Shown here one piece after another: positions 14,901 to 58,059 of a stretch of DNA of 64,000 nucleotides. How positions within the stretch are numbered: position 1 is the first letter of the stretch; every line of letters starts with the position of its first letter. Made by a program: the position numbers and the translations under genes. Origin of the DNA: Pyrocephalus nanus (Eukaryota; Chordata; Aves; Passeriformes; Tyrannidae); assembly GCA_038380795.1 (NCBI GenBank), contig CM076268.1, positions 15,690,001 to 15,754,000 of the forward strand. The letters run 5' to 3'. Below the pieces are notes generated by a model. It was given only the letters and a program-made list of their open reading frames with translations. It made no database searches and was not told where the DNA came from.

Positions 14901-15617
14901 AGTCCAAAAACCTTGAAAAACGTTCTAGGGATGGGGTATCCATAACTTCTCTGGACAACTGTTTCAGTGCCTCACCACCCTCACAGTAAAGAATTTCTTC
15001 CTAATATCTAATCTAAATGTACTCTGTTTCAGTTTAAATCCATTACCCCTTGTCTTGTCACTGTACATCCTTGTAAGTTGTCCCTCTCCAGCCTCTCCAG
15101 GTCCCCTTTAGGTCCTGCAAGGCCTCAATGAGGTCACCCCAGAGCCTTCTCTTCTCCAGACTGAACAATACCAACTCTCAGCCTGTCTTCACAGGATAGG
15201 TGCTCCAGCCCTCTGACCATCATTGACAGCCCATGTCCTTCTGCTGGGGGCCCAAGAACTGAGTGCAGCACTGCAGGAGGGGTCTCCCACCAGCAGAGGG
15301 GCAGAATCGCCTCCCTTGATCTGCTGGCCACTCTGCTTTTGATGCAGCCCAGGACACATTTGGTTTTCTGGGCTGCATGTGCACATTGCCAAGTCACATC
15401 AAGCTTCTCATCCACCAGCATCCCCAAGTCCTTCTCCACAGGGCTACTCCAAATCCATTCTCCTCCTAGCCTGTATTTCTGCTTGGGATCACCACAACCC
15501 AGGTGCACGACTTTGGCAAATTTCATGAGGTTGGCACAGGTTCACTTCTCAAGCCTGTCAAGGTCCCTCTGGACAGCATCCCTTCCCCTCAGTGTGTCAA
15601 CTACACCACAGCTTGAA
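14901..15617 (-). mobile_element. CR1 LINE fragment, 5'-truncated, 3' end missing
   Basis: Read on the minus strand, this matches the C-terminal part of the CR1 reverse-transcriptase ORF and the start of its 3' region. The minus frame at about 15134-15526 contains recognisable CR1 ORF2 blocks such as EKDLGMLVDEKLDVTWQCA, GCIKSRVASRSREAILPL and RGLEHLSCEDRLR. A short internal deletion separates the LCWW-like and RGLEHL blocks. The 5' part is lost, as in most CR1 copies, and the terminal ATTCTATG repeats are absent at the 14901 side. It is a decayed, non-functional copy and good evidence for a bird (or other sauropsid) genome. Confidence 0.93.
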
Positions 15618-23940: not shown

Positions 23941-24069
23941 TTTAAGTGAGCAAACAGGAAAAAAGTCGCAAACAGGACTTCCTCCTGGGATTTCTACATC
24001 AGTTCAGTAAAAACCAATAAAGTTCAGTGTTACTCATATAGATTAAGTCTTTCTCCCTGGATAGAAAAC
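23941..24069 (+). promoter_or_regulatory. Candidate promoter/5' UTR with ETS (PU.1-type) site
   Basis: Just upstream of the start codon is ACTTCCTC (23977-23984), the reverse complement of GAGGAAGT, a classic PU.1/ETS site. A 10-base direct repeat GCAAACAGGA lies at 23950-23959 and 23968-23977, the second copy running into the ETS site. There is no TATA box at a convincing distance. ETS-driven TATA-less promoters are common for haematopoietic genes, which fits a SLP-76-family gene. The same stretch could instead be the end of an intron feeding the acceptor near 24012, so promoter function is inference. Confidence 0.35.
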
Positions 24070-24144
24070 ATGGCCACAAAACTACCATCTCAAGAGGAAT
24101 TTGAGAACTGGACAACTTTTCAAGTTGCAGATCTCCTAAGACAG
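24070..24144 (+). CDS. CLNK: Exon 1 (coding part), start codon and first SAM helix
   Basis: The ATG at 24070 sits in a good context (A at -3, G at +4). The 25 codons begin MATKLPSQEEFENW and end ADLLRQ, and the exon closes on CAG before the donor GTACTG, in phase 0. Length and layout match the first coding exon of SLP-76, which is also Met-Ala at the start with a Trp near residue 15 and an ADY/ADL helix. The 5' border is unsure. Possible acceptors lie at about 24012 (TTTCTACATCAG) and 24065 (CTTTCTCCCTGGATAG), or the exon may begin at a promoter just upstream. Confidence 0.8.
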
Positions 24145-27100
24145 GTACTGAATGTTTATGTAACACTTAAGACAGTTCAGTCTCTCTTTGGCTAGCAGAA
24201 ACTCTTACTGGAATATCTCTGAAAACCAGATATATTATCCTAAATCCAGAACAAATATTCATTAGTATTGAAAATAATTAGTCACCAATTGCCACCCCCA
24301 AGAACTTATTAATATTACTTGAGGTTTTTGGCACTTTCCTGTTTTCTATAGAAATCTAATTCATGGTAGAAGCTGCTAGGTAAGATCTCCTACATGACAA
24401 ATCATACAAAAAATGTTTGCTCACAGGGATATTTCTTATAAGAGAAAAGGTATTTCACGCCCAAATTTATTTCCTGATGGGAAGCAATAACCATTTCACA
24501 GAAAATAGGTCTAGGTTTTATATTGGAATATAACTTTATAATTTACAGCCTTTCAATAAGAATTTACTGTTAATCTTTTCTCCTCAATGCATATATACCC
24601 ACAGTAGTTGCTAAATGTTGCTTAAGTTTAAGGTAATTGAGCTTTTTGGGGGTTTTGAATCATTCCTTTATTGTACATTTCTTAGTTCTACAATGTCCTT
24701 TCTGGTATATGTAAAATAACCTGAATTGCACAGAGTATTCCAAGATCATTTTCAGACACTTTTCACTACTTTAATAATCTCCTCCCAGATATATAAAATA
24801 TATCCTCCATGATATAGCCTTTTTTGATATAATATTTTTCTTTATAACTTACTGACTAGTATGACTCAAGTTTTAGACTTCGACCTGTAACTTATAAAGT
24901 CCATTCACTGCAGTTGCAAATATAGTCTCACTTTAAATTCTTTAAATTTAAACTTTAGACAAGTTTCTCTCTATAATTTTTTATATAAGATTTTTTTGTC
25001 TTGTGTTTATTCTAATTCTAACTCTAGAAGCACCAATCTTTTGCAATACCTTCTTTACACTAAAAGTGAGAATTTATTGTTATTAAGGTTTCTCATCCTT
25101 TTCTATTGAAGGAGCATACAATTTTTGTCAAGGAAAATAAGAGTGCCATGAAGTCTTCCCACAAGAGTTCCATTTGCAGCCATGCAAAAAGTTAGCCATG
25201 CAAAGTTTGAAATGTTCATTTTGTATTATTATTTTTCCATCTTGCATTATTATTTTTCCATCTTGCCTGTGTACAAATATATGTGCTCATTCCTGGACAA
25301 TTAAAGCAAAAACCAACACAACAAAACCACAAACAGATTCCTAATGGAGATGTACCACAGGTGGAAAATTGTCCCCACGTTGAGAAAGCTAACCCGTTCC
25401 ATGGAATTAATTCATACCATAACGATAACATATCAGCTAACCAGTGAACTTATTACTGTGAACAGCTACTCAGAGGATTAATTAGCTCAAAGCCTTTTAG
25501 CTGAAAGGAAGTCAGACTAATTTATAGAAGTTATAATGGTTTTAAAGTTCTGCAATTCTACAGCAGAACAGAAGACAGAAAGTTAATAACAATTGTTCAA
25601 CAACCCAGAGGCTTTCAGGGAAATTCCAGGCACACCATAACTACTGGCTTTATATTTGTTAAGAAAGTATCTTCCAACTTTATAAAAAGCTGTTAATGCC
25701 TATGCTTACACTCTTGTCACTGATTAAAGCAGCTAAATAATCCAATTACTATAGGATGACCCACATTAAGTGCTTGGCCATTCTACACTGGAAGCAGCAG
25801 CCATTTGCTTGTGGCCACCGTGTACAGAGTTGTCAGCTCCCACTGCCAGAGAGTCTCAGCACCACGTGGCACCATCATGTCTGTAGTCAGACAACACACT
25901 GGAGGCTGTGCTGGATCTCCCCACCCTGAGATGGGCCTTGCATGTGCATGAAACCTAAAATACTGTTAAGGTTACAGAAACAAGCACTGAAATTTGCCAG
26001 AACTGGGGTTACCTCTATAACCTGAATTTCTCGCCTTTCACATACACACCACAATAGCCTGTAATTGCTTCTTCACATATTACCTTTTCCATTCACAAAC
26101 ACCTGCCTCTGTCAGTGCAGAAAAACCAGTAGGTTTATGCACTACTCTCGGCTGTTAGAGAAACTGTAAGGTGCACAAGGCACAAGGCTTGGTGAAAAAG
26201 AGAGAATGAATACACAGTAATGTTGATTTAATTCTGCCCTGAAATATCAGATTCTGTCACTGCCCCAGCTCTATATTTTTATCTGAAGACATGCAAGTCA
26301 CCAAGAAAAAACATGATATTGCCCAAGGGCTTGACCTGTGGCAGTGAGAAGTAAGAGTTGCAACCACAGTGGCAGCTCCTCTCAGAAGGTAAAATGGCAA
26401 AATATTGAATATACAAACATACATGTATATCTCATAGATCTAAACAGTTGTAGTTAGGCATCCAAAAACACTGGATGCTGTACAAGGTTTTTATTTCATA
26501 CACCTCAACTTCCCTTACTAATGGAGTTTTCATCTCTCAAGGTGGTCTCAGAAAAAGCAGTTATTTGTTTTTCTGAAGCACTTGGACAATAAAGAGTGCT
26601 GTAGAACAGGTCAAATAAAAAAATCATTCTGGCTTCAGAGAAAGCTTCGATACTGTGCACTACAGGTATGCAAGATAGCAGACAAGCACTGAACAGAACA
26701 CAATATATCAAACAGCAGTTCAGGAAAGTAACATCAGCTTTTATGTGCTGTGACTGAGGCTGGGCTCTCTGGAAGAGATCTACTGATGCTGCTGCCATAA
26801 TACTTATGTAAAATAGGTATGTACATACCTACAGTGCCATTTTAGCATTTTCTTAACTTTGAAAGTCTTGATTATGTAGATATCTGCGTGTCATAAGTAC
26901 AGAAATTATTAATTAGCCATTCTGCAAAGTGTTTCCAGCCTCATAAAAGGCATTTTGTATCAAATCAATAACTTGACTACTAAATAATAGTAACCATTTG
27001 ATTTTGCTTTTGGATGTACTTCCCTGTTACCTCATATCTATGCTATAATTGCAACAACCCTGTGACATTTCAAGTTGTGTTCAGGGTTTGCCTACTTGGC

Positions 27101-30100
27101 CTCCATTTGCCACATAGTCTGGTCCTCTCCTCAATACTGATCTTAATATATTTGTAAGGAAAGTTTAGGTATTTGTAACAAAATGAAAGATTCCACGGCC
27201 ATCACTAAACACCAGTAGCAAGACATCCGCTTGTCTGATGAGCTAACCACGTAAAGGGAACAAATTTTCCCTTACACAAAAGTTAGAGGCTTGATTAATA
27301 GCATAAGGCAAAGCTCAAAAGCAGCTCACCAGAGCTAATACCTACAGATGGGCAAAAGCCAAGAGCAGGAAGTGTGCATAGCTTTGATTGTTTCTCTCTG
27401 CACCAACATCAGCGCAACTGATGGCAAATCAACACAATTCACAACCACTCATTGGTCCAACACCCACAGCAACCCTCTTGGTTGAATTGTGGTCTATTCT
27501 GTATTGCAATCAAGCAGCGCTCTCCAAATCACAGTATAAAAAAAATTATAAACTCAGGCATATCAGCTAGTAGGCTAAAAACCAGTCTGAATGTATGCCT
27601 GAACCTGAAATTTCCATATCAAAAAGTAGATCAAATGCACTTGGAATGTTTAAGCGTGATCAGTTTTAAGTAGTCTAGAAATAAAGAATTATCTTGGAAA
27701 AGCCACATAAATATGAGAATTTATTTTCACTAATATTTCTTTGTTAGTGCTGGAATTGGTCTTCACTGCTACAGACATTTACAGCTAAGCATTACAAACA
27801 GTAAAATTCATTTCAAGAGTGGTACATTCCTAAATAAATTTCTATTTTTTTTTGCCACTTTCCATGCATAACGGTTTAATTTCTTTGAGAAGCTACACTG
27901 AACCATCTAACACACAGTGAGATTTTTAGGACATCTTTAGCCCTGCTCCATTCCTTACTGACTTTTAATAAAGGGAATCTGATGTGTCCACTTATTTTTC
28001 CAAATTATTATTTAGTAACAGTGCTATTTAGAGATGTAACATTTCTGGACATTCCTGTTCCATTATAATTTATAGTCAGCACCAACTTCCTTAAGAACAC
28101 CACCATAACGTTATAGAAAAGAATTCTTTTTCTGAAGCCGAATTCAGAATGCCCATCATCGTGATAAGTGCAAGACACACTTAGTCCAAATATCTGGTGC
28201 TGAAGCCAAGCAGTCACCAGTGCATACCAGTCCCACAGCAATTGAAGTTCCACAGTGTATTTCTCCTGGGCTCCTTGCTCCATTTATATTACATTTGCTG
28301 CTTCATAACTTCATCTCATCTACTTCATTCACAGTTTTGTCAGCCCTTATCTCCTGTAATCTTTCTTCCTAAAAAGAGGTAATACCCTGTCTTATCTCTC
28401 ATGAGAAAGTCACTACCTAAGCATTATAGTTATCCTGTCCAATATTCTTCTTCTAATTGTCCTTGTCAATTAGTATAACTATTTCCACAACCCTGAGTAT
28501 TTGAGTACGGAAATATTAATTAGTTTGTTTACAAATGGCAAGTTTCATACCGTTGTAATAATTTTATCTTATTCTTACCTCAGTTTGGAATGCCTGAATC
28601 TGCTGTGATTGTAGAAAAACTGCGCATGAACGGATCTCACTTCTTGGTAAGCAAATATTCTGTAAGAGCTATCATTAAACCATATCTCAACATGAGGATT
28701 GTATTCCTTAGAGTGCCAGGAAACAATCTGAAATTTTCCTTCCGTATACACACTACATCAGTTACTCTGGTTTTGCATTTTAGTGGATTAATTTACACCT
28801 CTGCCTCAAGGAATCCCCCTACACAAAAGAAATCCCAGCCAGCCCTTCCCCTGCTCCATAGAAAGGGCAGATATTTAGCATCAGCCATTAGTACTCAGGT
28901 GTGTCAGGGAACATCTCATGAAATATTACTTGAAGCAGGTTGGCAGCTTTTTTAACAATAGACATGTTTTAAAGCCATTGTTTATGTAAAAGCTTTTTCA
29001 TAAAACCTGCATGATTATTTACCAGTAGAGACTTCTACATAAATTTTACAATAAAAGTTTAGAGATATTGGAAAAAATGTCTAAAAAAATCTGATAACTT
29101 TCTTTCTTGACCTATGTAGAATTTTTTTGCATAACAGTGTGTTTAATTGATTTCAACTAATTAGAAGACACAAATAGAATAACTCCTTGAACTGCAGCAA
29201 TTCCACTACCACTAATTCCACCTATTGAAGCAGAAGTTTCTTGAGATCTATTTTAAAGGTAAAATTGTTGTTGTGGTGTGTTTATGCAATGCAGAGATAC
29301 TATGTTTGCTTGGCAATTCGTTGCTCAACAAAACTATTTCCTGGGTGCATCAGGAGTTTTACCTGCTGTTTATGCTAACAAGGGCTTCAGTCCTGCAAAG
29401 TGATTCATTCATTAGACCGCAGGTGCATGTATGGCCACAGTAAAATTGGGATTTACTAAAAATTCATACTAGCACAGTAGGGCTAACAAAGCTGTAAATA
29501 TAGACTGATTCCTGTCCCATTCATCCATTCTAAACTGAATCACTAAAGGTGCTGTAGTTGGCCATTGCTGGATGAGAGGCAGTGAAGTTAAACCTAAGGG
29601 TGGTTGTGTTTTCTTCTTGTGCCTGCTGCAAATAGAGCTGTACAGCAGCAGTGAACAGGGGATCTGAGAAGTAATTTCAGGTGTTACTGGCAACCTATTC
29701 AAAACACAAGTGAAAAAAGCAAGGAGAACAATGGATGATCTTTGGTGACAGTCTGCAGTACCAAAAGCAGTATGACTAAAAATGAAAGGATTTCCTAGTA
29801 TGTTCCTCAAACTACCTAGGCTGTTCAACATGACTTTAAAGATTATTTTGCTCCGCAGAAAACATGACATTATACATGTGATACAATGAGCAACATCTGT
29901 TTTTTATGTCATTGTAGAGAAAATGAGACAGGTCTCACACACTGTCAGAAACCTTACTACAAATTTCATTGAATTGTTCAGTAGCATTGTCAACATGATA
30001 AATCTGTATGCTTGAAACAGAATTATTTAAAACAATACTTTAAAAAAATTTATTCAAGAACCTATATTTTGCTATTATTAATAGCATTATTTGAGTAACT

Positions 30101-33100
30101 CTAAGATACTGTTCTCCTATGTACAAGCTAATATGTATGCTAACCTGTAAGAAATGAAGTCAACAGCCAAGGTTTTTATTCTAAGCTCCTAGCCAAATAC
30201 ACATGAAATCCATATTATACCAGGAATTAAATGTTCCTTCACTGTTACAAGGTGTGGTTTAGAAATCACATCCTTAGAAGATCCACTTTAATATATGATG
30301 GAGTAACCAGATGCCTAAGGTACACATTTCCACTCAGAAAAATCGGAGTTCCTGTCTATGTCACCTACAGTGTGATTCCTTCACTGGATTTACTGGCTTG
30401 TGTAGAGCTGTCCCGAACTCCAAAATTCAAAAAATCCTTATGCTGTTATTTTGTTTATTTATTACCTTTTGCAAGAACCCAAGGTCTGGCACTTCAGTTT
30501 AAGATTTCCTTCCACTGCTGTTTGCAAAGTCTAAACAGAAGCTCAATACCACCTTCAGACACAGAGCTCAGAGTCACTAGAGAGAAGCCAGCCATTGCTA
30601 GACGACAGTGAACAAAAAACCCATAAAACAAAACACTTGAGCAAGCCTGATGCCAACTACAAAATAGGAGTGGCAGGTTTACCTTCCCATATTAATAACT
30701 TTTTTAAAAGCAAATACACTATCTGCATGTGCACAGAGACACTGTGAACACAGGTAGAGCTCTTGATACATGTGCAGTGTTTCTATATGTCTACCCAGTG
30801 TTAGATTCATATTTAGATACAGATTTGTTTGGATATGACATCTGTTAGGAATCCCTGGATAGAAAATTCCTGAGGAAAGCAACTCTGTGGTATCTGCCAT
30901 GAGAACACACTGAACTTTCCCCCGCCACACATTCAGAGAGGCACAAGTTACTGTTTTACCTTTTCACAAGCTGAAAAATTGTCTTCCATCCTGAGTGTTG
31001 CTGCAGAAGGCACACCAGAGTGCCTCTGAAGGCTGGCATGACATCCCAAGGGGAGCCATCCTCATGCCTACCAGCAGCTTTTCACAACTCTCAGACAAAC
31101 CCTTCTCACTGTACAACTCCTTCAGCCTGCCCCAAACCTCCACTATGGGAATAACACATGAAGCATGTGCAGCACAGGTATTTGGTAGCAGTGAGATCTG
31201 CCAAAATCCAGAGGCAGTGCCCCTTGGGGCAGATGGCATGCTGGCCCACTGGTGCACAGCACTGGAAGGAACCTTTCCTGGAAAGAAACACGTGCAGCCT
31301 CTGTGCTGCACTTTAACCATGGGATATAAATATCCACTAGATGTGCCTCTGCTTCCTGTGTGGTTTCAGCAGGGTGCTCATCTTTTTAATCTTTCTAAAG
31401 GGGAATGTGGTCAAATATTGGGGAAATGCTGCAGAAAGTAATTATTCTTAAAGCCTACCACTGAACTAACGAAAAACTTCTTAAGGGGCCATCCTGCATA
31501 TGTCCTTTGTGTAAAATGCAAATGACATTTTATTTGAAAGTGAATCAGATTAACTTATCAGTACTATAGGTCTTTTTGAAGTTTAGAGTGTTGGAAGTCA
31601 AGTCATGCAGATATTATAGCCACAGTATCTTTGATAAGTTAGCCACAACACCTTAAATTGATTTGACTGCTTTCAAAATAGAAATAATCAACATTTATAT
31701 GGTTATTTCTTTGAATATTTCTTGTCTTTGAGTAGCTAAAAGACAATCACTTTTATGGTAATATTATAGTCTGTTTTATAAATATACTGAGTATCAAACT
31801 GAACTTTTATAGGAAACTAAATTACATGCATTTTATAAAAATTTATAAGTAATAGCTCTTCCTTTACACTTCTGTAGAATCTAAAAACACAAAAGGGTGG
31901 CATATTAGATCTGAATTGTACCATGCAGTTTCATTTTTCATCAATAGTACCATACTTGTGATAGTTACTCAATATGCAGATCACATCTGAGTGATGCTAA
32001 TCTAGTCCTAATGTGCAAATCAACATTTAGCCACAGCTGCATTGCACAGAGCATATTATATTCTCTCTTGCTTTTTAATGTCTGAACTTGCTACACTGTA
32101 CTCCTGCTTTTCAGTTCCCTCTAAGAGTAGGTTGCTTCTTTGATGTTTTTTTTCAAATTATGTTTTGAATTCCCAGTGACAGATTGAAAAAGAGACCAAA
32201 AAAATAGTGAAGTCTTACTTGAACTTCAGAACTGAAAAAAGGTAGACTTTCTTATCGGATTTGTATATAGAAATTTACTAAAAGAAATCTCAAACATAGC
32301 AAAATGGTCAGACATGGATTCTAAACAGCCTTCATGTATTTCTCCTTTCTTGCTATTTCAAAATGCGTTTTGAATTGCATGGCTGGAATAGGAATGCCTT
32401 GGAGAGAACCAGACCCCTGTTATTCACCAATACTCTGCTGAAGATTTTTGAATAACATTTAGAGAAGAGAACTTGTGTCTTCCTGTGGGAGATTCCTGAC
32501 TCCCTGTCAGGGCAAAACACTGCCAGAGCTTGCCAGGTTCAACTCACTGAGCCTGTCCTTTGACATTCATTTCTGTCAGCATTGCTACTGAGAAAAAGCA
32601 ACTATTGTCTCACTTGGATGCTCATTTCCATCCCTGCAATACAGAAGCAGCAGACAGGAAAGGACAGATACCACATCTACTTTCTCCAGTGACCACAGCA
32701 AGTACACACACCACAGCTAGTATTCTTCTGCTGCTATTTGAAAGCTGCAGAGTCCCACACCACCTTCCCTAGTTTTAGCTAAAAGTTTTTCCTAATGCTG
32801 AGAGTGGTAACTTCACAGCACAGGGTTGGGGAGTAGGTGGAAGGACAGATTAAAATTAGTTTGGGCTGCTTGGATATCTGTTAGGGAAAAGAGCTAACCA
32901 ACATCAGGTTCTGTTCAATTTGATCTGGCATCCACCCCTGTACATTTAGTTTTACAAATAAAATTCAGACCATCAATGCCTTGAGTTTCCAGAGGAAGGG
33001 GAAGGGATGAGAATCTTTTCTAGGTCTTGCATAAACAACAGAAATTAGAAACTTACTAAGTACATCTTTATAACCTAATTCTTCTGGGAAGGGGACAAAA

Positions 33101-36100
33101 AACTCCTGCAGTGTTTTCCCTGGGTATCAAGCAAGCATAGAAAGCTTGCATATAGGGAAGGTCAGAGAAATAAGGTGCAAGTTGCAGGTACTGCTGAGTT
33201 CTACTCTTAGGTTGGCTGTTGATAGCTTAATGCCACAAGTTCATAGCAAAGCTTTAATAGTATACTGCTTATCTCAGAAAGCCATAAAATAAGCTTTTTA
33301 AAATCACACAAAACCTTATTATTAATGTTTTAGGGTAGGTTGTGGTATGGTATGTTGTATGAGTGGAAGCGATATAAGCATTGTTTGTCCCACCTTTGGT
33401 AAACACTCAAGGTCACCACAGCAAAAAAACAACTACTGTTCACCACAGAAAAGTGATGCTACAAAAATACACATTTTCAGCTGCAAAATATGATTAGGCC
33501 ACGTAGCTGTATTAATTTAATTGCATTTTTGCACAATTTCTATTCTTCTGACATTGCTTTCTCCTATTCACATTTATCTACCATCTGACATACACATCCC
33601 GCTCACCTTTCCCCAATGCACTTTGTAAGGGCTGAGCCCCTCTTTGCTCCCTCCTCTTTACATCTCCTTGCCTTAGGCGCCTTCCAACATCTAGTGCTTT
33701 GTTTCTGTTCTTCTTTCAGCCAGGCTCCTCCTTCCCTTTGCTCCCTAATTGGGTTCTACTGGTCATGGACAGAAACTGCTCCTGCTGATATTTCTCGTGG
33801 ATTCAGTCCTACAGGCTTTCCTTATTTCCATTCTTCTCAGATGTGGAGGCTTCCAGTCAGAAGCAGAGAGGTGGCAGAGGTGGTTCAGATATGAAAAGTA
33901 CTTTTTCAGAAACACCTTAATTTCCACGTATTTCTACAGGCTCACTTTCCAAATGAAGAGCCTGGATAATGGTAGGAGCTGGGCACCTTAAGAGCCTGAT
34001 CTCTTTTATGCAAAGACAAGTGATCTCAGTACCTACCCCTATAGCAAGTGCTTTACAGACTTTGAAAACACAGTGAAAATAAAGCTGTTTAAAATGAAAT
34101 TTTTTCAGGGCAGGTAGAAACCGAAAATAGTTTCTCCTCCAGGGAGATGGAGGCAAAGCATTAAAACAGAAGGCAGAAAACGTAACAGAGCTGAGAAGTG
34201 CAAGCTTTGCCCCCGAGCAGTTCTTGCAGAGAGATGCAGTGGGGGGCTGAGGAAAAGGACAGGTAACAACAGCTCCCGAAGTGGCCTGAACATCATCGGC
34301 TGCCAAGTACAGGTGGCTTTGGTTCTGCGTCTAACCCAAGAGCAAACTGCTTCTGAAAGCAGAATTACAGTTATTTAATAGTCATTTCCAGAAGAGGAAA
34401 ATGACAAGAACATACCTCAGAAAGGAGGCAAATGTTATTTAGCATATAAAATACCTAGACCTTAAAGAGACCAGGGCTAAAAGGGAGATACTTTACAGCT
34501 TAGCACCTCTGCTGCTTATCAATCATCTTCAATTAAGTAGTAAGGTACAATGGCATTACATATTCATGTATCATCAACAAAGCATAAGGCAACTGTAAAG
34601 TAAAAGAAAAATTTGCATATTTATCCTTATTCTTCAAAAAATCCACAAAAAGATAAAGATGATAAGTTACTAAATGTAGACATAATTTCTGAAATCTAGG
34701 GCACCATGAAGTTATGCATCATTATCTGATGCATAAGAATGCAAATTATTTTAGCTATTAATTTATTAGTTTAAAATATATAAATATTATAAAGAAAACA
34801 CTCAAAAGAAATTATTAGACTAAGATACAAAGTCAAACATCATTATCACCAGATTCCCATAAATGTTAGCTTGGAAACTGAATTTTTACCCAATCATTTT
34901 GAATTATTTTCCTGCCAAGCATTTTCAAATATCTGTAATAAAACTGTTTAGTGTCATAATCTAGCAATGTAATCATGCAGTCAGAAATCCTGAGCCAGTG
35001 CACAAGTATTTATTGCAGGAGTGGTCCCTTAATTTTTTCTGTGACAGAAGAGCATGTCTATTCATATTCAAATTTTACTGCCAGAAATTATTAGAACATT
35101 TTTTTTGTTTTGCTTTATGCAGTAGCTGTGAATGATGGGAAGTGCCCGCCTGCTTTGCAGTCTTTAAGCTCCAGCACACAACAATCCAATCAAGTTCTAA
35201 ATGTCATGTTAGTCATAATTACATTAAATATAGATTAAAGAACTATCTTTTGACATAGAATTCTTTCTTCTTAAAGTTTGCTGATAATTTTAAATGTTAT
35301 TAAGTCCTGTGTACCTTTCAAGTTCAAGAAACATGAAAAAAAATGGAAAAGTTGTGGAAATTTTTTAGCTGTTGTGTCGTAGTTTCTTTCTAAAGTGGAC
35401 TTTTTTAGCCCTTAGCTGAAAAGTAGAAAAACTACACAGTCTCAGGCTTTGTAATTTTTAATTTCCTCCTGTTTCTAGTTTGTTCAAATATCCTATTTAT
35501 ATAAGTGCACACCCTCTTTTGAGACAATTTGTGATCTGAACAATCTTCATTTCGGTTGCTTTTGTACTCTTTCCTTCCTGAAAAATCAGAAGCTTTTACA
35601 ACACATATAAGTTGCAACTTCAAAACACCCAAAACGCCCAAAATTATTAGTAATGTTTAAAAATCCAGCCAGAAACTATAATCAGTCTCCCATTGTTACA
35701 TACCAGCTGCTAACCATTTCAGAAATCTTCTAGCATCCCTAATCAGAAATTTTGTCCTTCTGTTTCCAACACAAAGCTATAAACTCCTAATTCTCCACTC
35801 TTTATTTTATCCTTAAAGAGGCAGGTGAATGTGGGAAACTAAAATGCCAAGTACACTGTATCACTGTTTATTTTCTGTACAAGAATGATCCTACCAAAAA
35901 AAAAAAAAAACAACCAACACCCAACCAACCAAACAAAAACAAAAAACGGGGGGGGGGGGGGCGGGGGCAGGGGCAGAAAAATAATCAGTAGCATATTGTA
36001 AGTATCATAAGGATTATTTGCTTTAGTTATAAGCTTCAGTAAGTCCAACAGGAAGTCTGCAAAATATCTCAGAAATAGCAGGTTTTCTCTTCTCCCAGTA

Positions 36101-48100: not shown

Positions 48101-51100
48101 TGCAGACAAAGCCAGAGTGGCTCTGTACAGAGCAACTGGCCTCCTGTCATTGCAAGTGCTCCCACTCAGACCTGAAAGGTCAACAGCATATTAGAACTGC
48201 TAAGCACCTGCACTGGATTACCAGCTTCAGGACAGATAAGATTGCATCTCCCAGCTCTGGCTGGCACAACTGTTAACAACTAATCTTGTCCTTAGAGAGC
48301 AGCTCTGCAGCAAACAGGATTGCTGCTCGGCTCTGCTTTCGCACTGAAGCAGGAGGCTCGCCTATCTGAAATGACAGCTGCTGTTTCTTACACCACTTCT
48401 ATAACTGTGACTTTAGTTTCACGGCAGAATATCAACATTTGCGTTCAACAAATATGATTCACCATGTTTTGAAAGTAAGAGAGATGGAATCATAGAGGCA
48501 GCATATGATTCATCACAGCCTCGAAACTGCACAGAGCTTTGTTTCATTAGAATTATATACCAATATTTTTTATCTCAGATATTTTCAACAGTTATTATGA
48601 ACTAAGAAGATTCTAAAATAGACATTTGCAACCAAAAATTGACCAATACAGTCTGACAATTCTTGCCAAAACCTGCTAACCCCAAAAAAATAAACTGGGG
48701 TTTTTTTTGCCCACTTCTAATCATACTTTCACAGAAATACTGTTGCTTTCCTTCTTCCTTCAGATTCATCTGTCTTCACCCAGCCTTCTCTTGCTGATCC
48801 AGTTTAATATCTGGAAGTCAGATTTGAATGATGCTTTTATATTTTTCTCTGTTCTTTTTAAATTGCACCCTTTAATTATAGATATGGCGTTCCTAAGCTA
48901 TGTTTTAAAAATTTTTAAAATAACTAATATTTCTTTTTTACATATCTTTGCTTTTCCTTGTTTTTAGTAATTTATCCATTATATCCATATAATGGCACTG
49001 CAGGTAAAGCTAAATTAAAGCCTCAGTGGGATAGCTATCACACAGAGTTTTAGAAAGGGTTTTTTTTTTCTTCAAAGACACTAAAAACAAAAGCTAGATA
49101 AAACACGGAAGACAATAGAAAAATATTTTTTGAAATGCTCTTTGAATAAAAATATCAATGAGAAACGAGGATATCAAACATGATTTGGCCAATAAACAAG
49201 GGAATCATTTAAGCACATGCCTATAAGCGCTGTTGATTCAGACTCCACACACCTTGCCCGAATTCATGTGAGATAGTTTTGGCCATGAAGTCCTGCTGCC
49301 CTTCCTCCAGGAGCTTACACTTGTGAACGATGCCACACCTGAGACACTCATCACAGCTCTGAAGCCAGATTTCTCCTGTTCATCCATAAGAGGTCTAAAA
49401 TTGGTGACTGTCAAACAACTTAAGTGACCCTGATGAAATCCTTTAACCCTTACCCTCACCTTTTGTAATCCTCATGCTCCTTTCAGCCTTTTCTAATCAA
49501 ACTGTTCATTGGGATGACCCTTCTCTAGCAGGAGGCCACGCATTCATAAAGATGAACCAGCATCTTGCGTTATAGAAGTGAGTTATTAATAAGATTTAGT
49601 TTTAATTGCTCTGTACTGAGCTAAAGTACAGGAAATTGCAATTTTAGTATGTAATATAGTTACAATCTGTTCATCTGCTAAGAAAACTGGTCTTACTACA
49701 AAAGTCATTTTGCACACAAAGTGCTCTTGCTACCACTAGATGTCAGTTTTACACATTTTAAAATGGACCAATACCTTAAAAATTACTATTCTCCATTCAG
49801 AATAGAGACATCTATTATGTCGTTCTTTCTCGACTGACCTTTAATTTTAAGGACCTCACATTTTATTTACCTTTTTTCCTCCAGCCCCCAACACCCCTCA
49901 TGACACAGTTCTCCTTTATCTAAGAAAAAAAGACCTAACATTTTCCACTATGCATTTATTCCGTGATTTACTCAGTCTGAGACACTCTGACAGTTTTTGC
50001 CAGGTATTGCTAGCAAAAATCTCTAGCTCAGGTTGCATTTCTAGAGGCCAGCACTGAAATCTTACTTATATTCCACAAAGATATTTTTATATTCCATAAG
50101 GACATTTTTACTAAGAACTGTCATATCTTCTCTGACTAATTACAGATAGGCTGCTATGTCAGTTAATAAAGGATATAATTAACATGGCTTATTACATTTC
50201 TATGATATTTCAGATTTTTATTTATATTGATTGCCTAAATTTAGGTAATTTTTATTTACACTCCAAATTTCTGTCTCTCAGAAGTGACAAGACTAGCTGT
50301 ATTCTTTTTGTCAATACCAAACAATTTTCATGAACTAGTCTTAACATAAACTTGGTCATAGTGAATACAGAACTTCTGTATCATGCATTTACTTTAGCAT
50401 ACCAAAATGAAATTGCTTTATATCAGGTAAATGTCTTTACTTCCCTCCTTCCTCCCCCCCAAAAAAGAAGAAAACTAGGAAGAAGTCAAACTCATTATGC
50501 GTTATTACATTCAAGTATACTTATACATACACAAAAAAATACGAACTCATTTCACAGCAAACATTTCCAAAGCCACATATGACAAGAACAGGCAGCTATA
50601 GAACATAACTCTGCATTGTTGTAAGGCAATAACAAGACTGTCACCTTACATGCAGCTTTACTGCCCAGAGATTGACAGCTTATCTAGCAACACAGTATGT
50701 TTGTTTACCATAGCGTCAAAGGAATCCCCTCATTCTCATTCACATCAAAATCTGACCTTTTCAAACTCCTACTGATGCTTCTCAGCTCTCCTGGGTTGTT
50801 CAAGGTATTATTTGCAACTGCAGCCATCACCATCTTACACAGGTGCTTACCTACCAGAAAGGCTGGAAAGTAAGGAAGGGGAAACATGTGCTTCTGTGAA
50901 CTTAAATATAGTTGAAAAGACTGTATCATGCAATCAACTGTATCAACAGCCTTTTTCAAAGACATCTGAAAACTTTTTTGAGGCAACAACCTTATTCACA
51001 ACATCCCTTAGCACAACTTCAGCTAGGAACTGTGAAAGCATGGCAAAAAAATCCAAAGCAAATGCAGAGGCCAAAACACATGAGGTCCCATGACTTCTGA

Positions 51101-54100
51101 CAGCAACATTTATGACTTAGGAGCCTTCCACACGGAAGTGCTACGCCTGGGGCAGGCAAAGGTGCCATAAGCTCTGTATATTCCATTCCCCTTCCTGCCG
51201 CAGCTAGTCAGCTTCCTCAACCAGGACTCCAACTTGCATGCTCTCTATCCCTCATCCACCTCCCAGCCATCCTCTACACGCCCCCGAGTGCAAAATGCCC
51301 CAAGTCCCACCCAGTCAAGGCATGTAAGCCACATGCACACGCACTGATCGCTTGCGAGCCCACGTGCAGAACCAGAGCGCCTCAGACATGGCAGATTGCT
51401 CTGGATGTACTGCATAGTCCACGTGCACGAGTCAGTTTAAACTTCTCCAAACAGAAATACATAAAACCTATTTATAGGTCTGCAGCTCCAGACTGTACAG
51501 AAACTTACCTTCTCTTCGCTTTTGATGTAAGGTGTCCCCTTCGTCAGCACCCATGGTGGCAAGCAGCTGCGGCAGGATAGGCTCAGATCCAAGAAGTGCT
51601 TCTGCAAGTAAAGGAGCAAAAGACACACCTCAGACATTTGCACCTTTGCATTACAGCCTTTCTCCCCCTCCACAACGCTGATTGACTTGATCTGCAAGCT
51701 AAGAATTTTGGTTACTCAGCTACTGAGCTAAACAAGTGAGTTGCTGAGAAAGTTGATGTTGGGTGAATGAAGCAGCCAGTAGAAATGAGGAAATCAATAG
51801 CATGTTAAAAGGGAACATAATTTTTATATGCTTTCCAAATTGCACTCCAATATGAAACTATAAACATAAAACAAATAAACACCCCAATCTGTCCCTTTAG
51901 TTCCTCAATATATATTTGGCAACTCAAATCCCTCCAGGAAAGAAACTACTTTAACTTCTTCTTTATCACATATATTCATTTGCAACTTATTCCATTCATG
52001 CCAATATGAATCACTAACAACGTTTATCATAAGCAACAACAGAAGCAATGGGTAATTAAAACCTGGAAGCATTAGTCAACTTCCTACAGAAGCTACCATG
52101 TAATTTCAAAACTGTTGAGTTTGCAAGATATTTTCATACTCTTTCCTAAGACCGGAATTTTGTTACAAAAAAGCAGCAGTAGCTCTTAGTTTCAATCAAT
52201 AGTGCATTTAAAAAATAGGAAAAAAAAAGCTCTCAGCTGGACCCACAGGTATCAATCTCTTCAAACCTCAGAGGGACTCATAGCTTAATTCCCCCCACTG
52301 AAGACTGTCACAGGAAAGAAAAAAAAAGGAATAAAGTTAAAACTCTCTCTATAAAACAATCACCAACATAGGAATTGCTTAGATCCATTGCTTCCTTCAC
52401 CACCAAGCTCCACTGCTAGTTTAAAAAGTGCTTGACCTAACTGCGTACCCAGCACTTGCCTGTATGAAAATGCACGTGTGCTCAGGCAGCACGTTCCAGC
52501 AAACATCATCTTGGAAGGACAGAGAGAATTACACAAGCTATTTGTCTGAAATCACCAAGCAATTACACCCCGACAATCTTAATGCACACAAGTAAACGTT
52601 TAAATAACCTGTTTTGCAAAGAGAATGAGCAAGAATCAAACCCTTACAACAAAAAGCAAAGCTGCTGCCTCCTCCTGCTATTGTTTAAGAGGGGCAAGAG
52701 TAGGGGAGGAAATGGCCCTAATACTTCTGGTCATTGATATGCAGAGGCAATTTGGTGAGTCATCACTTCAGCTGATGCCTGAACAAGCCCAGATGGGCCT
52801 GTATGGCAATCAGATGGCTCAATACAGTTTTAAATTTCCCCAGGAATTTGGTGATTTCTAGATCTGCTAGATCATCTGCTAATTAGCATAACATCTACAC
52901 GTAGATATGCAGCTGCTTTTTTATTACAGTATAATTACAGGCTAAGTATTAAATGTACGGGGTTCTCTACTGTCTGAAATGGCATATTTTCACAACAAAT
53001 ACGTCAAAGAAATGCAGACATTCACTGGAATTTAAATATAAACTGAGGAAATATGTTTTCTCTGAGAACTTACATGTTCTGCACTTCATCTCCTCTCATA
53101 CAATCGTTATTAGTGCTTCCATTTGTACGGCTGATACAAACACATGTATCATGCTGGTCAGATGGTGAGAGAAGAGGCAAAATAGTTTGTTTTGGGACTG
53201 ATGGCTGGGGTGTTATTCAGAAAAACACAGACCTGGGCAAATAGCAATTATACTACAGTGAACTCAATATCACTGAGTTCACTGGAAAATATCTGTTTCA
53301 GGGATTTCACATCCATTGTTAGGTGTGCCAAGGAAGTCTCAGGAAATAGGCAAAATTAATTTCCTCTTTCTGACACAAAAATAGATGAAGGGTTAGAATT
53401 GCATCTATTAAATACACACGTTTTAAGCCTGACCTATCTGCTGAAATCTATGCTGACAAAGAGGGCATTTTAGCATTGGCAGGTTTCTGGACAGAAACCA
53501 TGCGATCCATACTCAGTCTGGGTACAATCCAGAGACTTCACTGGAAATTTTGCACTAAAGGAAAATCCATAGTTAAAAAAAATGTTTACTTACACTAGCT
53601 TAAAACTCTGACTTGAGCACAAGCTACACACTAGCTTGAACATCACAGGCAGTGCATAGACTCCTTGACACATTGAGCTGAAAGGTCTGTAGAGCTACAC
53701 AAACTTTTGAAATCATTTGGTTTGTTTTCAGTATCTTAATTAGCTTGTGCAGCTTGTGCAGCACTGTATGTGCCAAGGTGGCACAATACAAATTCTATTC
53801 CTTTTCATCACCAGCTTTTCATGGGTTGAGAAGTGATGTAGAACTTTAGAAAAAGAACAGACCAAACATGGAGTTAATGATATTCCAACCATTGTTAAAG
53901 TATCTTCCACTCAGCCATTGTTATACTAATCTGCTGATTTCAGTAAAAGAAACTCAAAGAAAGTCTATGCTGGAAGAGACCATATTAAATAGCTTGCTTA
54001 TCACTTTTTGAATGATTCATTAACCAGCCTAATTTACTCTGCCACATGCCTAGTAAAATTCCAGTTTAACAACTGTAGTGTGAGCTACCAGCTTTTTAGA

Positions 54101-57100
54101 AATGTTACAACAGGCCAGTAACAAAAAGTTAAGCATTAACCAAGATGAGACAAGTATACAGCTACAAAACTAAAAACTGTTTTTTCAGGTCTTTGCTTAG
54201 TTCACTCTTTAAAAAATTGTAAAAAACCCATTCACTTCATGGGTTGCTCTTGACTAAAATAACCTTTATTTAAAATATAAACCCTATTTTCTTTCTTTTC
54301 AGAATATATCAGACTATGAGCTGAACCAATTCAAAATAATGCACCAACCGTAAGTTTCTTATTATTTTCTGCTTTCCACTGAATGACTACTACACTGCTA
54401 TACTCTGACTGTTTCTCTGTTAAAAAATTAGGGAAAATGAGAACTGAAACCACTTGCTCATGTGAACAGCATTAATTGATGTGGGTAGAACTTCCTTAGG
54501 ATTAGGATCCTGGAATGTTTACAAGAGCTGTGGTTCAGATCAGCTGACAGCTCCTCTGCTGGGTGATATTCTTCCTCAGAACAGATAGGGACAATCTTAA
54601 TATTAGAAAAAGTACAAGTTCATCTTATTCCAGAATACAAAAGCTCTTTGCTTGTACGGTGTATTTTTGGAACTGGTTCATCTGCTGCTTAAGGATCAAT
54701 TTAAGTGATCAGTTTACCAAAGTGCAATGTTGAAAGTAATTTAAATAGAATTTAAATATAGTACTGAATAAGTAAATACACATATAACAGTTGGGAAACG
54801 CCTTAATGTTTTTTGTGACAAATTAAGTTCATTTAGAAGGATATCCATAATGTTCAAGTACATAATTTCTCTTATAGTACTACACAGAAATAATATTAGG
54901 AAATTTTCTCTATGAACCAATGAAACCAAGAAGACTTCAGTTAAATACAGAGGGTCTTGCTGATCTTTACCTAATTGTTGTTATTATTTCATGTAGCTTC
55001 CCCCTCACCTGCTAGCTGGGAAAACACTGTATATATTTACAAATTGCTTTCTGAATTCCACTCTATTGGTAAGAAACTGGATGAACTTGAGGGGATTTTT
55101 ACCCATTAAATTCCTATTCCTATTGACAGAAATTTGATGAGCACACAGGTAAATATTATTCTGGGTTAAATTTAATAATTAACTAGATAAGTAAAGAAAA
55201 TATCAAAGGACTTTCTTCCAAAGCAATTAACAGGACATCATTTTGAGAGAAAATGTAGAGAGAATTAATATAAAGTTAACCAAGGATATATCCTCTGTTT
55301 CTGTGATATACATGAATCTAATCTACTACAACATTGAGGCAAACAGAGATCTATTGAACTAAGGCCAAGGGTTCCCCACTGATGAGGGAATTCAAGCTTT
55401 GGATTCTCAAACTGTATATTGCAATAACTAAGGTGTTCTGCCATATGAATTCTGTTGTCCAAAGTATTAAAACTCCTTAAATGCAGGGTATGGATGTCAT
55501 ATCCCTAGTACTCACTTCTGCTCTAAAATCTGTTACTCTTACATCATACTACTTGCTACTGCAAAAATTGCCTGAGTTTGTAGCATTCAAACAGTTTAAC
55601 TGGAGAAGGTCTATATTGATCCACCTAAGCCAGATGAACTGGCCTGTTCAAGCCTATTCATACAGAAGGTAATTCCCAATGGACCAAAACACTAAGGATA
55701 GATAAAGAGAAGAGTAATTGCAAGACAAGTTGAAACTAAAAAACTGTAAAGTTTCTCCTGGCAGTGGCCAGTGCTTCAGTGCCTTCATAAAGTTTCTTCA
55801 TGGGCCTTCATTAGACAGCAGCCAGGTTCTCTGACATGCCACCAGCAAAAGCTCTTTGCCTTTCCCATTCTAGTTCTCACTAGTGCAACACTTGGCATTC
55901 TTACTTTCTGTAAGATCTTGAGTCTACAAGGCTATAAATGCTCTGGGAAATAAACACAGTTATTCTGCATTCTGCTGGGACATCTCATCACAGATATACC
56001 AGGAGCAGTGAACAGCCAGCCATGGGTAAGCTTCCCTGACCTCTGCACCAAACACCTCCACTAACTGAATGCCAGGCTCTTTTCCCTCTATTCAGTACTA
56101 AACCTGTTCTCTAAGCAGGAAGAGACAAAATGGCTTACCTGGGAAGAGTTTATCATAGTAATTCTGTTTTGCTACTCTGAAGTAAACTTTTTTTGCATTA
56201 CACTTTTCATGAAGTCTCTTACCATATTCTGTTTTTTCAATCAGTGTTGGCTTTGACAGCCTAAAGGCAGCCTGATATAAACCAGTTCCCACCAACACTT
56301 AAAGCCACAGGTCTACCTTGATTGCTTCTGAGCAGCTGCTAAATCTCTATAGGGAAATTATCAAGGTGCAATCTCTACTAGTGTCCTGTCCTGTCCCTGA
56401 AATGCAATAATCAAATATTTCTTTCCGAGTCACTAATCCAAACCCTTTCTGGAGCTGGCTGCTGAAGTTGTGCAACAAACTGCTCTCACAGGTTTATATG
56501 TTTTCAGCAGTCCTGAAATCATGTTGAAATCTTGAGCTTTGCTTAAAGCCCTTCCTCCTGCAAAAGCACCATTGTATTTTTCACTCCACACACCAGACTC
56601 AATTGATACACCCAAACCATTGAACAAGTTCACTCTCAAGAATGCCAGTACAACTGCATTTTCCACATACTTCCCATCAGAGAAGTTTCAGACATCCCAC
56701 TGACTACAGTCATGGGCTCATTTATTCATTGTTAAAATTTATGCCAGGAAGAACACTATGTAGAACATCACACTACATTCAGGAGTACTCTTTAAGAGAA
56801 TGCAGATAACAAAATCAACCTCATACCACAGATATATCAGAATACTGGAACTTAAGTCCTTTCCAAACATACTGTCTCGCTGTCTTTACTTAACATTTTA
56901 ATAAGCAGTGCAAATAAGATTGGTATTTATAACTGGATTCAGGGAAAACTAGCACATAAGCTCTAACTCAATTATAAACATCCATAATTTGGAAGCACAT
57001 CTTCCAAAGAAAGAAATTTAATTACAGCTCCATCACTTCAGTGTAGATAGTCCAAGATCTACAGTATCAGATGTTTCTGCAGAAGTTGTTTCACAATGCT

Positions 57101-58059
57101 TTCAGCTTACTGAAGTTCCATCTTCCCAGGGACCGTGAAATTAAAAGGCTGCCTTTATAGCTAATGTGATTAGACATTCATCCCAGATCAAACTCAGAAT
57201 AAATTTTGCTCTCAGCTCAGGAGCTCTGGGGACTAATTTCCAAGATCAGGGCTGAAATCTTTCATCACAAAATCAGTTCTCTCTGTCACATGTGCAAATT
57301 CAAAAGCCAGTTCTGGCTGTGTCAGGTTGCTAGGTAGGTAAATAAGAAACCTTCTCCTGCAAATCAGGTATGAGGTGTCAAGTCTTGAGTTTACCATTTG
57401 TATATAGCAACGTGCAGTTATGGAAGATCCTGGGTAATAAGTGAGCTGTGTTGAGGAACACATAATTACAAGCTCTGTTTAATTGTGGTGTGGGCAGCAT
57501 TTGATCTCCTTTGCTTGAAATAAACCCCTACCAATTTTCACTGCTGTGAAAAATGCAGTTTGTTTTACCAGGAATTTATAGCATATGCAGAAAAATTTTC
57601 TAATCTCAAACCAAGTATTTTGTAATTAAGATTGATTTCTAGATTAATTTCTAACATTTATTTTTCATTTGTTCATAATTTTTAGTAACTCCAAGCTGAA
57701 ATTGGCCATCCTTGCCTTCCAAGAATAAGCAATGCCTTTTCCCGAGACATATGAATAAATTCTCCCTTGTGAGAGCTGTTACCTTTGTAAAGCTGAGGTG
57801 TTCCACTTGAGATGTCTGCACTTGCATTAATTCAAACATCAAGAACTAGAAATGTTACACATTAACAGCTTTTTTTTCCCCTCTCTCCTCCACTCCCATT
57901 ATTTTCTTTTATTTCCTCATTATGAAGGCAAACAACCTAATATGGAAAATTCAGTTTTCAGTTTGTCACAGACATCAGCATCTAAATATAGGGACAAGTC
58001 CCCCATATACAAGATGCAAAGGCCTCGATCACCTCTTAGCTCCTTTGTCTGGGTCAGAA
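24070..58059 (+). CDS. CLNK: SLP-76-family adaptor, SAM-domain N-terminus (CLNK-like), 5' partial gene of five exons
   Basis: Five exons (24070-24144, 28584-28646, 54303-54349, 55016-55068, 57928-58059) join without a frame break to 123 residues plus one base. Residues 11-79 form a SAM domain: W14, ADLL at 20-23, NGSHFLNIS at 41-49, NQF at 54-56 and the closing helix YKLLSEFHS at 70-78. SLP-76 (LCP2) has the same layout: a start Met-Ala, Trp about 14 residues in, a 21-residue second exon ending in Phe-Leu, and a third exon starting Asn-(Ile/Leu)-(Ser/Thr). The linker (81-123) is Ser/Pro/basic with Tyr100 and Tyr107, and FSL...Y..(M/Q)..P spacing recalls the start of CLNK. Family members are cytosolic scaffolds that couple immunoreceptor kinases to PLC-gamma and Vav through phosphotyrosines and an SH2 domain; those parts are not in this window. 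The SLP-76 family call is strong. CLNK rather than another paralogue is inferred, from recalled family sequences. Confidence 0.72.
24145..28583 (+). other. Intron 1 of the CLNK-like gene
   Basis: A 4.4-kb intron with donor GTACTG and acceptor ATTCTTACCTCAG. AT-rich and without a recognised transposon. It contains a perfect 21-bp tandem duplication at 25225-25266. Confidence 0.7.
25225..25266. repeat. Perfect 21-bp tandem duplication
   Basis: ATTATTATTTTTCCATCTTG followed by C occurs twice back to back (25225-25245 and 25246-25266). Confidence 0.95.
28584..28646 (+). CDS. CLNK: Exon 2, central SAM helices
   Basis: The acceptor is ATTCTTACCTCAG and the donor TTG/GTAAGC. The exon is exactly 21 codons in phase 0 at both ends, from FGMPES to NGSHFL. 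The homologous SLP-76 exon is also 21 residues and ends in a Gly-x-x-Phe-Leu pattern, a typical SAM core signature. The same frame stays open into intron 2 until a TAA at 28953-28955, so retention of this intron would add about 100 unrelated residues; this looks fortuitous. Confidence 0.85.
35896..35973. repeat. A-rich tract followed by 14-G run, G-quadruplex-prone
   Basis: Fifteen A (35896-35910) lead into an A/C-rich stretch with CAAC/CAAACAAA units, then 14 G (35948-35961), C, 5 G, CA and 4 G to 35973. The plus strand has enough G runs for an intramolecular quadruplex. Such tracts are also prone to sequencing and assembly length errors. Confidence 0.9.
43765..43892 (+). mobile_element. CR1 LINE 3' end
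   Basis: The sequence GATGTGGCACTTAGTGCC (43783-43800), then AAAGGTTGGACCTGATGATC and TCCAACCCATCTGATTCTAC, ends in GATTCTAC-GATTCTATGA. This is the plus-strand 3' UTR of a CR1 element with its 8-base terminal repeat. Only about 130 bases remain. It lies inside intron 2 in the same orientation as the gene. The start is approximate. Confidence 0.92.
46876..46908. repeat. 11-bp tandem repeat, three copies
   Basis: GCAAATATGGA occurs three times without a break (46876-46886, 46887-46897, 46898-46908), inside intron 2. Confidence 0.95.
51110..51430. promoter_or_regulatory. CpG-enriched block with two CACGTG E-boxes
   Basis: About a dozen CpGs fall within 320 bases in a window that is otherwise CpG-poor. 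Palindromic E-boxes CACGTG lie at 51361-51366 and 51420-51425. The block is inside intron 2. It is a candidate enhancer or internal promoter, or a young insert not yet depleted of CpG. No direct evidence separates these. Confidence 0.3.
51509..51601 (-). other. Minus-strand exon-like segment with perfect Kozak start
   Basis: Read on the minus strand, TCCTTTACTTGCAG (acceptor) is followed by 93 nt and then GAGAAG/GTAAGT, an ideal donor. Inside is GCCACCATGG, the optimal Kozak sequence, with ATG at 51554-51552; it would give 15 codons (MGADEGDTLHQKRRE) plus one base. A different frame is open through all 31 codons in phase 0 (KHFLDLSLSCRSCLPPW...). I recognise neither peptide. It could be an exon of an antisense gene or long non-coding RNA within intron 2 of the CLNK-like gene, or a chance cluster. 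Confidence 0.3.
54303..54349 (+). CDS. CLNK: Exon 3, SAM segment NISDYELNQF
   Basis: A pyrimidine-rich acceptor (TTTTCTTTCTTTTCAG) and a donor GTAAGT bound 47 nt: fifteen codons plus CC of a proline codon. The peptide NISDYELNQFKIMHQ matches the SLP-76 pattern N-L-T-E-N-D-I-Q-K-F almost position by position, with conserved Asn, hydrophobic, acidic and Phe positions. It lies 25.7 kb after exon 2, so a single SAM fold is split by a very long intron. Confidence 0.85.
54350..55015 (+). other. Intron 3 of the CLNK-like gene
   Basis: A 666-base intron with GTAAGT donor and the acceptor CTTCCCCCTCACCTGCTAG. A competing acceptor ends at 54996. Nothing else is recognised. Confidence 0.7.
55016..55068 (+). 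CDS. CLNK: Exon 4, C-terminal SAM helix
   Basis: This 53-nt exon was found by frame matching. It supplies the one base that completes the Pro codon from exon 3, then 17 codons (WENTVYIYKLLSEFHSI), then one base that makes Gly with exon 5. The acceptor is CTTCCCCCTCACCTGCTAG and the donor TTG/GTAAGA. The peptide aligns with the SLP-76 segment that closes the SAM domain (I-L-S-K-L-S-Q-E-I). A second acceptor 19 nt upstream (TTTCATGTAG, ending 54996) would bring an in-frame TAG. Confidence 0.75.
55069..57927 (+). other. Intron 4 of the CLNK-like gene
   Basis: A 2.9-kb intron with donor GTAAGA and acceptor TTCCTCATTATGAAG. A minus-strand open frame of 66 codons (56098-56298) with a good donor-like site at its middle is unidentified. 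No repeats are recognised. Confidence 0.65.
57928..58059 (+). CDS. CLNK: Exon 5, Ser/Pro-rich basic linker
   Basis: The acceptor follows a long pyrimidine tract (TTTTATTTCCTCATTATGAAG) and the donor is AA/GTAAGT. The exon gives two bases to complete a Gly codon and then 43 codons (KQPNMENSVFSLSQ... to ...SPLSSFVWVR) plus one base. It is rich in Ser, Lys, Arg and Pro with two tyrosines, as expected of the unstructured region of an adaptor, and its FSL and YKMQRP stretches resemble the N-terminus of mammalian CLNK. A second GTAAGT at 58085 could be an alternative donor. The other reading frame from this acceptor is also open but would not join in phase. Confidence 0.7.

What the first reader, a model, noticed from the sequence alone, without database searches (positions are those of the whole stretch)
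24070..58059. SLP-76-family SAM domain encoded at the head of a CLNK-like gene in a bird genome
The five exons assemble in phase to a SAM domain with the exon boundaries of SLP-76, followed by a linker resembling the start of CLNK. Mammalian CLNK, as I recall it, begins in the linker and has no SAM domain. If this is CLNK, birds keep the ancestral SAM module and mammals lost it, which would change how this adaptor is thought to oligomerise or localise.
Basis: partly seen in the sequence, partly recalled or inferred. Interest (0 to 1): 0.8.

Follow-up and report, generated by a model that had tools for sequence, protein, structure and literature searches.

The report
Hidden SAM domain in bird BLNK
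The window carries the first three exons of an alternative start of the B-cell signalling gene BLNK (not CLNK); they encode a SAM domain, probably for self-association, that gene models show in many vertebrates but that the textbook mammalian protein lacks.

Summary
Three of the five proposed exons are real: 24070-24144, 28584-28646, 54303-54349 (+). They encode helices H1-H4 of an SLP-76-type SAM domain. The gene is not CLNK. Downstream on the same contig and strand lies BLNK, with its usual first exon (MDKLN..) 17 kb past the finding. Window exon 3 ends in phase 2 and fits BLNK exon 2, which supplies helix H5; the joined sequence aligns ungapped to the human SLP-76 SAM (E 2.1e-6; 13-sequence profile 3.5e-15, next PDB chain 0.016). 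Of 145 relatives held, 88 have the full SAM: 54 bird proteins and 34 others (turtles, alligator, squamates, amphibians, platypus, bichirs), 23 a part, 34 none. No therian mammal was among the listed rows. AlphaFold of one relative gives the SAM pLDDT 92-95, best PDB match again SLP-76. So BLNK has two alternative N-termini, SAM or MDKLN. Self-association of the SAM form is inferred from SLP-76. No transcript was seen. Gene models already hold the isoform; I found no description of it in my paper searches.

The parts
24070..24144 (+). SAM exon 1 of BLNK, MATKLPSQEEFENWTTFQVADLLRQ (H1-H2), ends in phase 0
   Evidence: Read from sequence; at least one shared 5-residue word in 88 of 145 relatives
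28584..28646 (+). SAM exon 2 of BLNK, FGMPESAVIVEKLRMNGSHFL, phase 0 to phase 0
   Evidence: shared words in 82 of 145 relatives
54303..54349 (+). SAM exon 3 of BLNK, NISDYELNQFKIMHQ + CC, ends in phase 2 and fits BLNK exon 2 (G AAG CTT..) at position 90310 on the window scale, outside the window
   Evidence: shared words in 63 of 145 relatives; junction HQP-KLQKMVHDIKK seen in relatives
56305..56365 (+). Reader-type exon 4 as I could best fit it; judged spurious
   Evidence: No shared 5-residue word in 145 relatives; the 56311 form has a lower SLP-76 match (against 26); against this, the 56305 form scores as well in Pfam
57928..58061 (+). Reader-type exon 5 ('CLNK-like linker'); judged spurious
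   Evidence: One incidental word in 1 of 145 relatives; from 57928 the CLNK-like frame does not follow exon 4, though a later acceptor at 57972 would keep it

Best explanation
The exons are the start of an alternative transcript of BLNK (SLP-65). A promoter upstream of 24070 gives a message that splices exons 24070, 28584 and 54303 past the CpG-rich exon (MDKLN..) to BLNK exon 2. The product has a complete five-helix SAM domain in front of the usual tyrosine/proline linker and SH2 domain. The other start gives the MDKLN form, which keeps only the last SAM helix (H5). Shown: exons, frames, the same junction in gene models of relatives, fold prediction of a relative. Inferred: transcription in this species, two promoters, and that the SAM makes BLNK self-associate as the SLP-76 SAM does, giving clustering that does not depend on the lipid-binding N-terminus of the MDKLN form.
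For: BLNK exons downstream on the same strand; in-frame splice to exon 2 and ungapped match to 2EAP over 73 residues, E 2.1e-6; 13-sequence profile E 3.5e-15, next PDB chain 0.016; SAM_1 matched at E up to 1 by 13 of 13 members; 88 of 145 held relatives with the full SAM, from bichir to bird; both N-termini in one species, Corapipo altera P0001 and P0098, and an MDKLN-like start in Xenopus, P0131 and P0132; AlphaFold of the Bucco capensis relative P0044: pLDDT block means 92-95 for residues 11-70, H5 at 61-73 in the shared exon, best PDB hit 2EAP E 1.3e-4; SAM H1-H4 kept better than the linker over long distances, 58.6 against 43.4% eagle to nine amphibians. Self-association of SLP-76 SAM and of H5 alone: PMC3795252, abstract and passages.
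Against: The relatives are gene models or predicted proteins; I saw no transcript. No assay of a BLNK SAM is in what I read. 23 of 145 held models have only part of the SAM and 34 have none, so exon 1 may be skipped, alternative or misannotated in places. Within birds the SAM is hardly better kept than the linker (ostrich and kiwi 87.1 against 86.7%). The region near exon 1 is GC-poor (0.346, CpG o/e 0.10) and no promoter was shown.
Confidence: 0.93

Rival explanations
1. The exons head a CLNK gene in birds.
For: CLNK is in the same adaptor family; an SLP-like SAM is present.
Against: The exons downstream match BLNK (81% over one SH2 exon, against 49% for recalled human CLNK over the same exon); relatives with this SAM are named B-cell linker or, in two cases, by a generic SH2 name.
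Confidence: 0.01
2. A separate short SAM-only gene or a decayed duplicate lies upstream of BLNK, and gene predictors join it to BLNK by mistake.
For: The exons lie upstream of a CpG-rich BLNK first exon; no transcript evidence was seen.
Against: Without BLNK exon 2 the domain lacks H5; the phase-2 junction and exon 2 give an ungapped SLP-76 SAM alignment; the same junction is in models from bichir to birds.
Confidence: 0.04
3. The SAM isoform is real but does not act by self-association; it is a docking site for another protein, as reported for ACK1 and the SLP-76 SAM. (Not exclusive of the gene identity above.)
For: PMC5391757: title and abstract opening in the search listings and one reference-list passage only.
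Against: H5, the reported self-association helix of SLP-76, is kept in the BLNK SAM.
Confidence: 0.35

Closest known systems
LCP2 / SLP-76 (human SAM structure 2EAP)
   Same: N-terminal five-helix SAM; ungapped SAM alignment; best sequence and fold match in PDB
   Different: About 25% identity in the fold match; as I recall SLP-76 always begins with the SAM, whereas here it is one of two alternative starts, with H5 on a shared exon
Mammalian BLNK / SLP-65
   Same: Exon 2 onward and SH2 match recalled human BLNK
   Different: Described as starting with an N-terminal leucine zipper (PMC4850452 passage; MDKLN start recalled) and lacks SAM H1-H4
Sea star BLNK-like and amphioxus slp76
   Same: SAM at the N-terminus, SH2 at the C-terminus (PMC11593052 and PMC5431462 passages)
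   Different: Invertebrate family members; amphioxus has an extra WW domain

Membership tests
BLNK | BLNK-type SH2 and N-terminal/acidic exons in the same gene | tested here: met
Middle exons between 101782 and 118415 not mapped
BLNK | In-frame splice from the window exons to BLNK exon 2 | tested here: met
   Frame and GT-AG sites; same junction in gene models of relatives; no RNA seen
SLP-76-type SAM domain | SAM fold closest to the LCP2 SAM among solved structures | tested here: met
   Sequence. Fold: on a relative's protein
SLP-76-type SAM domain | Self-association through H5 | not testable with these tools
   Reported for SLP-76 (PMC3795252 passages)
CLNK | CLNK linker and SH2 exons downstream | tested here: not met
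   264 kb (window plus 200 kb) scanned with recalled human CLNK; its SH2 hits are BLNK exons
CLNK | Synteny with HS3ST1 and ZNF518B | tested here: inconclusive
   A 1568-codon stop-to-stop frame on the opposite strand past BLNK (126849-131552 on the window scale) has one C2H2 match below Pfam's cut-off (17.9 against 25 bits); I take it for ZNF518A from recall. HS3ST1 and ZNF518B were not searched

The most novel reading that the evidence does not exclude
BLNK of most bony vertebrates exists in two forms: a SAM form that clusters like SLP-76 and an MDKLN form that attaches to lipid vesicles. Therian mammals lost the SAM form, and the N-terminal 'leucine zipper' of mammalian BLNK is the leftover fifth SAM helix, comparable to the SLP-76 H5-only mutant that still self-associates.
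Probability: 0.5. Interest if true: 0.75.

Novelty: new variant of a known kind. Interest (0 to 1): 0.58.

Why it matters
BLNK is a central adaptor of the B-cell receptor. The work on its N-terminus that I saw describes lipid binding and CIN85-driven clustering with human protein, in part in chicken DT40 cells (PMC7016142 passages). If birds, reptiles, amphibians and platypus also make a SAM form, the mammalian picture is a reduced one: the mammalian N-terminus would be the remnant of a SAM domain, and clustering by SAM a mode shared with SLP-76 in T cells. It can be tested at once in chicken B cells.

Tried and rejected
CLNK identity: rejected. Reader-type exons 4 and 5: several splice choices tried, then dropped after the relatives were seen. 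A regex classing of relatives (68 full, 24 part, 30 MD-type, 14 other, 9 without the block, of 145) hung on exact spelling and was replaced by alignment (88 full, 23 part, 34 none, of 145). 22 of the 142 matches were not listed there. A PU.1-like site (ACTTCCTC at 23977; motif recalled) near exon 1 is not significant: 5 in window, 2.21 expected, 10 of 100 shuffles reach it. A recalled human DNTT protein had no match at E up to 1 in the 264 kb. BLNK middle exons between 101782 and 118415 were not mapped: one search stopped with a script error, tblastn only printed its usage text, and only splice-site candidates were listed.

Papers: ten searches. Those aimed at a SAM in BLNK/SLP-65/CLNK were 18 (0 papers), 21 (1), 22 (8), 28 (1), 57 (9), 58 (3) and 64 (20 of 29 listed). 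I saw titles and abstract openings, and opened passages of PMC11593052, PMC4850452, PMC5431462, PMC3795252, PMC7016142, PMC5391757, PMC12133306, PMC9672449, PMC5817858, PMC2277405 and PMC3870970. None of these passages describes a SAM in vertebrate BLNK; the other listed papers were not opened. The library is open-access PMC only.

Full report
The window is C10:15690001-15754000 of a 1.07 Gb assembly with no name attached. The closest partial relative is the Empidonax traillii model P0065, 34 of 35 residues over the shared part of the SAM, so I infer a suboscine passerine bird.

Checking the observation. On the + strand, 24070-24144 reads MATKLPSQEEFENWTTFQVADLLRQ and ends at a GT donor in phase 0. 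28584-28646 reads FGMPESAVIVEKLRMNGSHFL between AG and GT. 54303-54349 reads NISDYELNQFKIMHQ and two further bases, between a pyrimidine tract with AG and GTAAG. I take these for the first three exons of the finding. A fourth and fifth exon can be fitted, but only by choosing among several alternatives.

What the gene is. The strongest CLNK hit is an SH2 exon with 49% identity. BLNK matches the same exon at 81%, and also a first exon MDKLNRLTVPAGEKFR at 75098-75144, exon 2 at 90310-90375, an exon at 97780-97829, acidic-region exons to about 101782, and three SH2 exons between about 118415 and 120516 (window scale, all +). So a BLNK gene lies downstream on the same strand; its middle exons were not mapped. 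The MDKLN exon sits in a CpG-rich stretch (GC 0.659, CpG o/e 0.97 over 1 kb); the stretch at 24070 is not CpG-rich (0.346, 0.10).

The junction. Window exon 3 and the MDKLN exon both end in phase 2, so both fit BLNK exon 2. Joined to the window exons, exon 2 adds KLQKMVHDIKKNESG, which aligns with the last SAM helix of SLP-76. Against all PDB chains the joined sequence finds the human SLP-76 SAM (2EAP) first, E 2.1e-6, 31.1 bits, 73 residues without a gap; the next chain is a bacterial FtsX at 0.013. In Pfam the versions do not separate: SAM_1 24.2 bits with exon 2, 24.3 or 20.9 bits with the 56305 or 56311 form of exon 4, 20.9 bits with exons 1-3 alone.

Relatives. Three protein searches gave 142, 58 and 99 matches; the first listed 120 of its 142. 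In all 145 distinct proteins are held. By local alignment to the window's 62 residues, 88 of 145 have the full SAM, 23 a part and 34 none. Of the 88, 54 are bird proteins, some species more than once, and 34 are others: nine turtles, one alligator, nine squamate proteins, twelve amphibian, one platypus, two bichirs (species). The junction is the same as the one I derived from DNA. For Corapipo altera both the SAM form (P0001) and the MDKLN form (P0098) are present; Xenopus tropicalis has an MDKLN-like start (P0131, P0132). No therian mammal is among the listed rows of the three searches, but a search needs shared five-residue words, so this is only weak evidence of absence. None of 145 proteins shares a five-residue word with the 18-residue reading of exon 4 and one shares an incidental word with exon 5. 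Most of the listed proteins carry only the SH2 label, or none, in their precomputed Pfam annotation; P0121, P0134 and P0140 also carry a SAM label.

Structure. AlphaFold on a 28-sequence alignment headed by the partial Bucco capensis protein (P0044, SAM plus linker, not the window's own protein) gives pLDDT block means of 92-95 for residues 11-70 and helices 8-12, 16-25, 29-38, 42-46, 50-53 and 61-73. From residue 71 on the block means are 65 or less, including a predicted helix 75-105. The best PDB match is 2EAP, E 1.3e-4, TM-score 0.74 by target length, rmsd 1.6, the only one of 225 matches with E up to 0.001; other SAM domains follow. The profile of 13 SAM pieces (A4; the window's and 12 relatives chosen to span the groups) finds 2EAP at 3.5e-15, next chain 0.016; 13 of 13 members match SAM_1 at E up to 1. 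The last helix, 61-73, is on the exon shared with the MDKLN form.

Constraint. Against a harpy eagle protein, mean identity for nine amphibians is 58.6% in SAM H1-H4, 67.2% in the shared exon, 43.4% in the linker and 77.0% in SH2. For four turtles the SAM and linker values are 75.8 and 65.6%, for alligator 77.4 and 67.6%; within birds the gap closes (ostrich and kiwi 87.1 and 86.7%, one manakin 91.9 and 87.3%). Over long distances the SAM is kept better than the linker, as expected for a working domain.

How it probably works. For SLP-76, the isolated SAM forms dimers (KD 2.5 uM) and tetramers, SAM deletion removes self-association and microclusters, and H5 alone still supports weaker self-association (PMC3795252, abstract and passages). 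For human SLP65, a variant without its first 45 residues does not attach to vesicles and supports neither granules nor calcium flux in B cells, with DT40 used for the imaging (PMC7016142 passages). From these I infer that the SAM form clusters by its SAM, while the MDKLN form, with H5 but not H1-H4, uses lipid and CIN85. This is not shown for any bird protein.

What is known. A sea star BLNK-like protein and amphioxus slp76 have a SAM at the N-terminus and SH2 at the C-terminus (PMC11593052 and PMC5431462 passages). The amphioxus authors state that the tunicate protein has no SAM and that the SAM had not emerged before amphioxus; the sea star protein suggests it is older. A typical BLNK is described as beginning with a leucine zipper (PMC4850452 passage). 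My paper searches found no text on a SAM in vertebrate BLNK (searches, listings and opened passages are named under Tried and rejected); subscription papers are not in that library, and the isoform itself is already in database gene models.

Limits. No RNA evidence, no therian genome, and no look at CLNK or LCP2 in this assembly, because the genome search did not complete apart. That search listed 102 SH2 matches, none of them the BLNK SH2 exons, so it cannot show short SH2 exons of this kind.

Noticed in passing
Window scale 95698-95754 (C10:15785698-15785754, outside the window): A 57-nt stretch encoding FQNEQVALICKTGKDTWDR, a cassette of BLNK identical in other birds and nearly the same in turtles, frogs and a bichir; present in some models and absent in others. 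I recall no mammalian counterpart; not searched.
   Followed up: partly
Window scale 126849-131552, minus strand (L015:2849-7552): A 1568-codon open frame convergent to BLNK with a C2H2 zinc-finger match below Pfam's cut-off; probably ZNF518A by recall. BLNK and CLNK may thus sit beside paired ZNF518 genes.
   Followed up: partly
15137-15541, minus strand: An open frame that reads like a CR1-type LINE reverse-transcriptase end (recalled motif; frame).
   Followed up: no
Relatives P0064, P0068, P0072, P0075: Some gene models start with other residues (similar to one another..WEKKN.Y..) spliced to SAM exon 2, skipping exon 1; either a further start or an annotation error.
   Followed up: no
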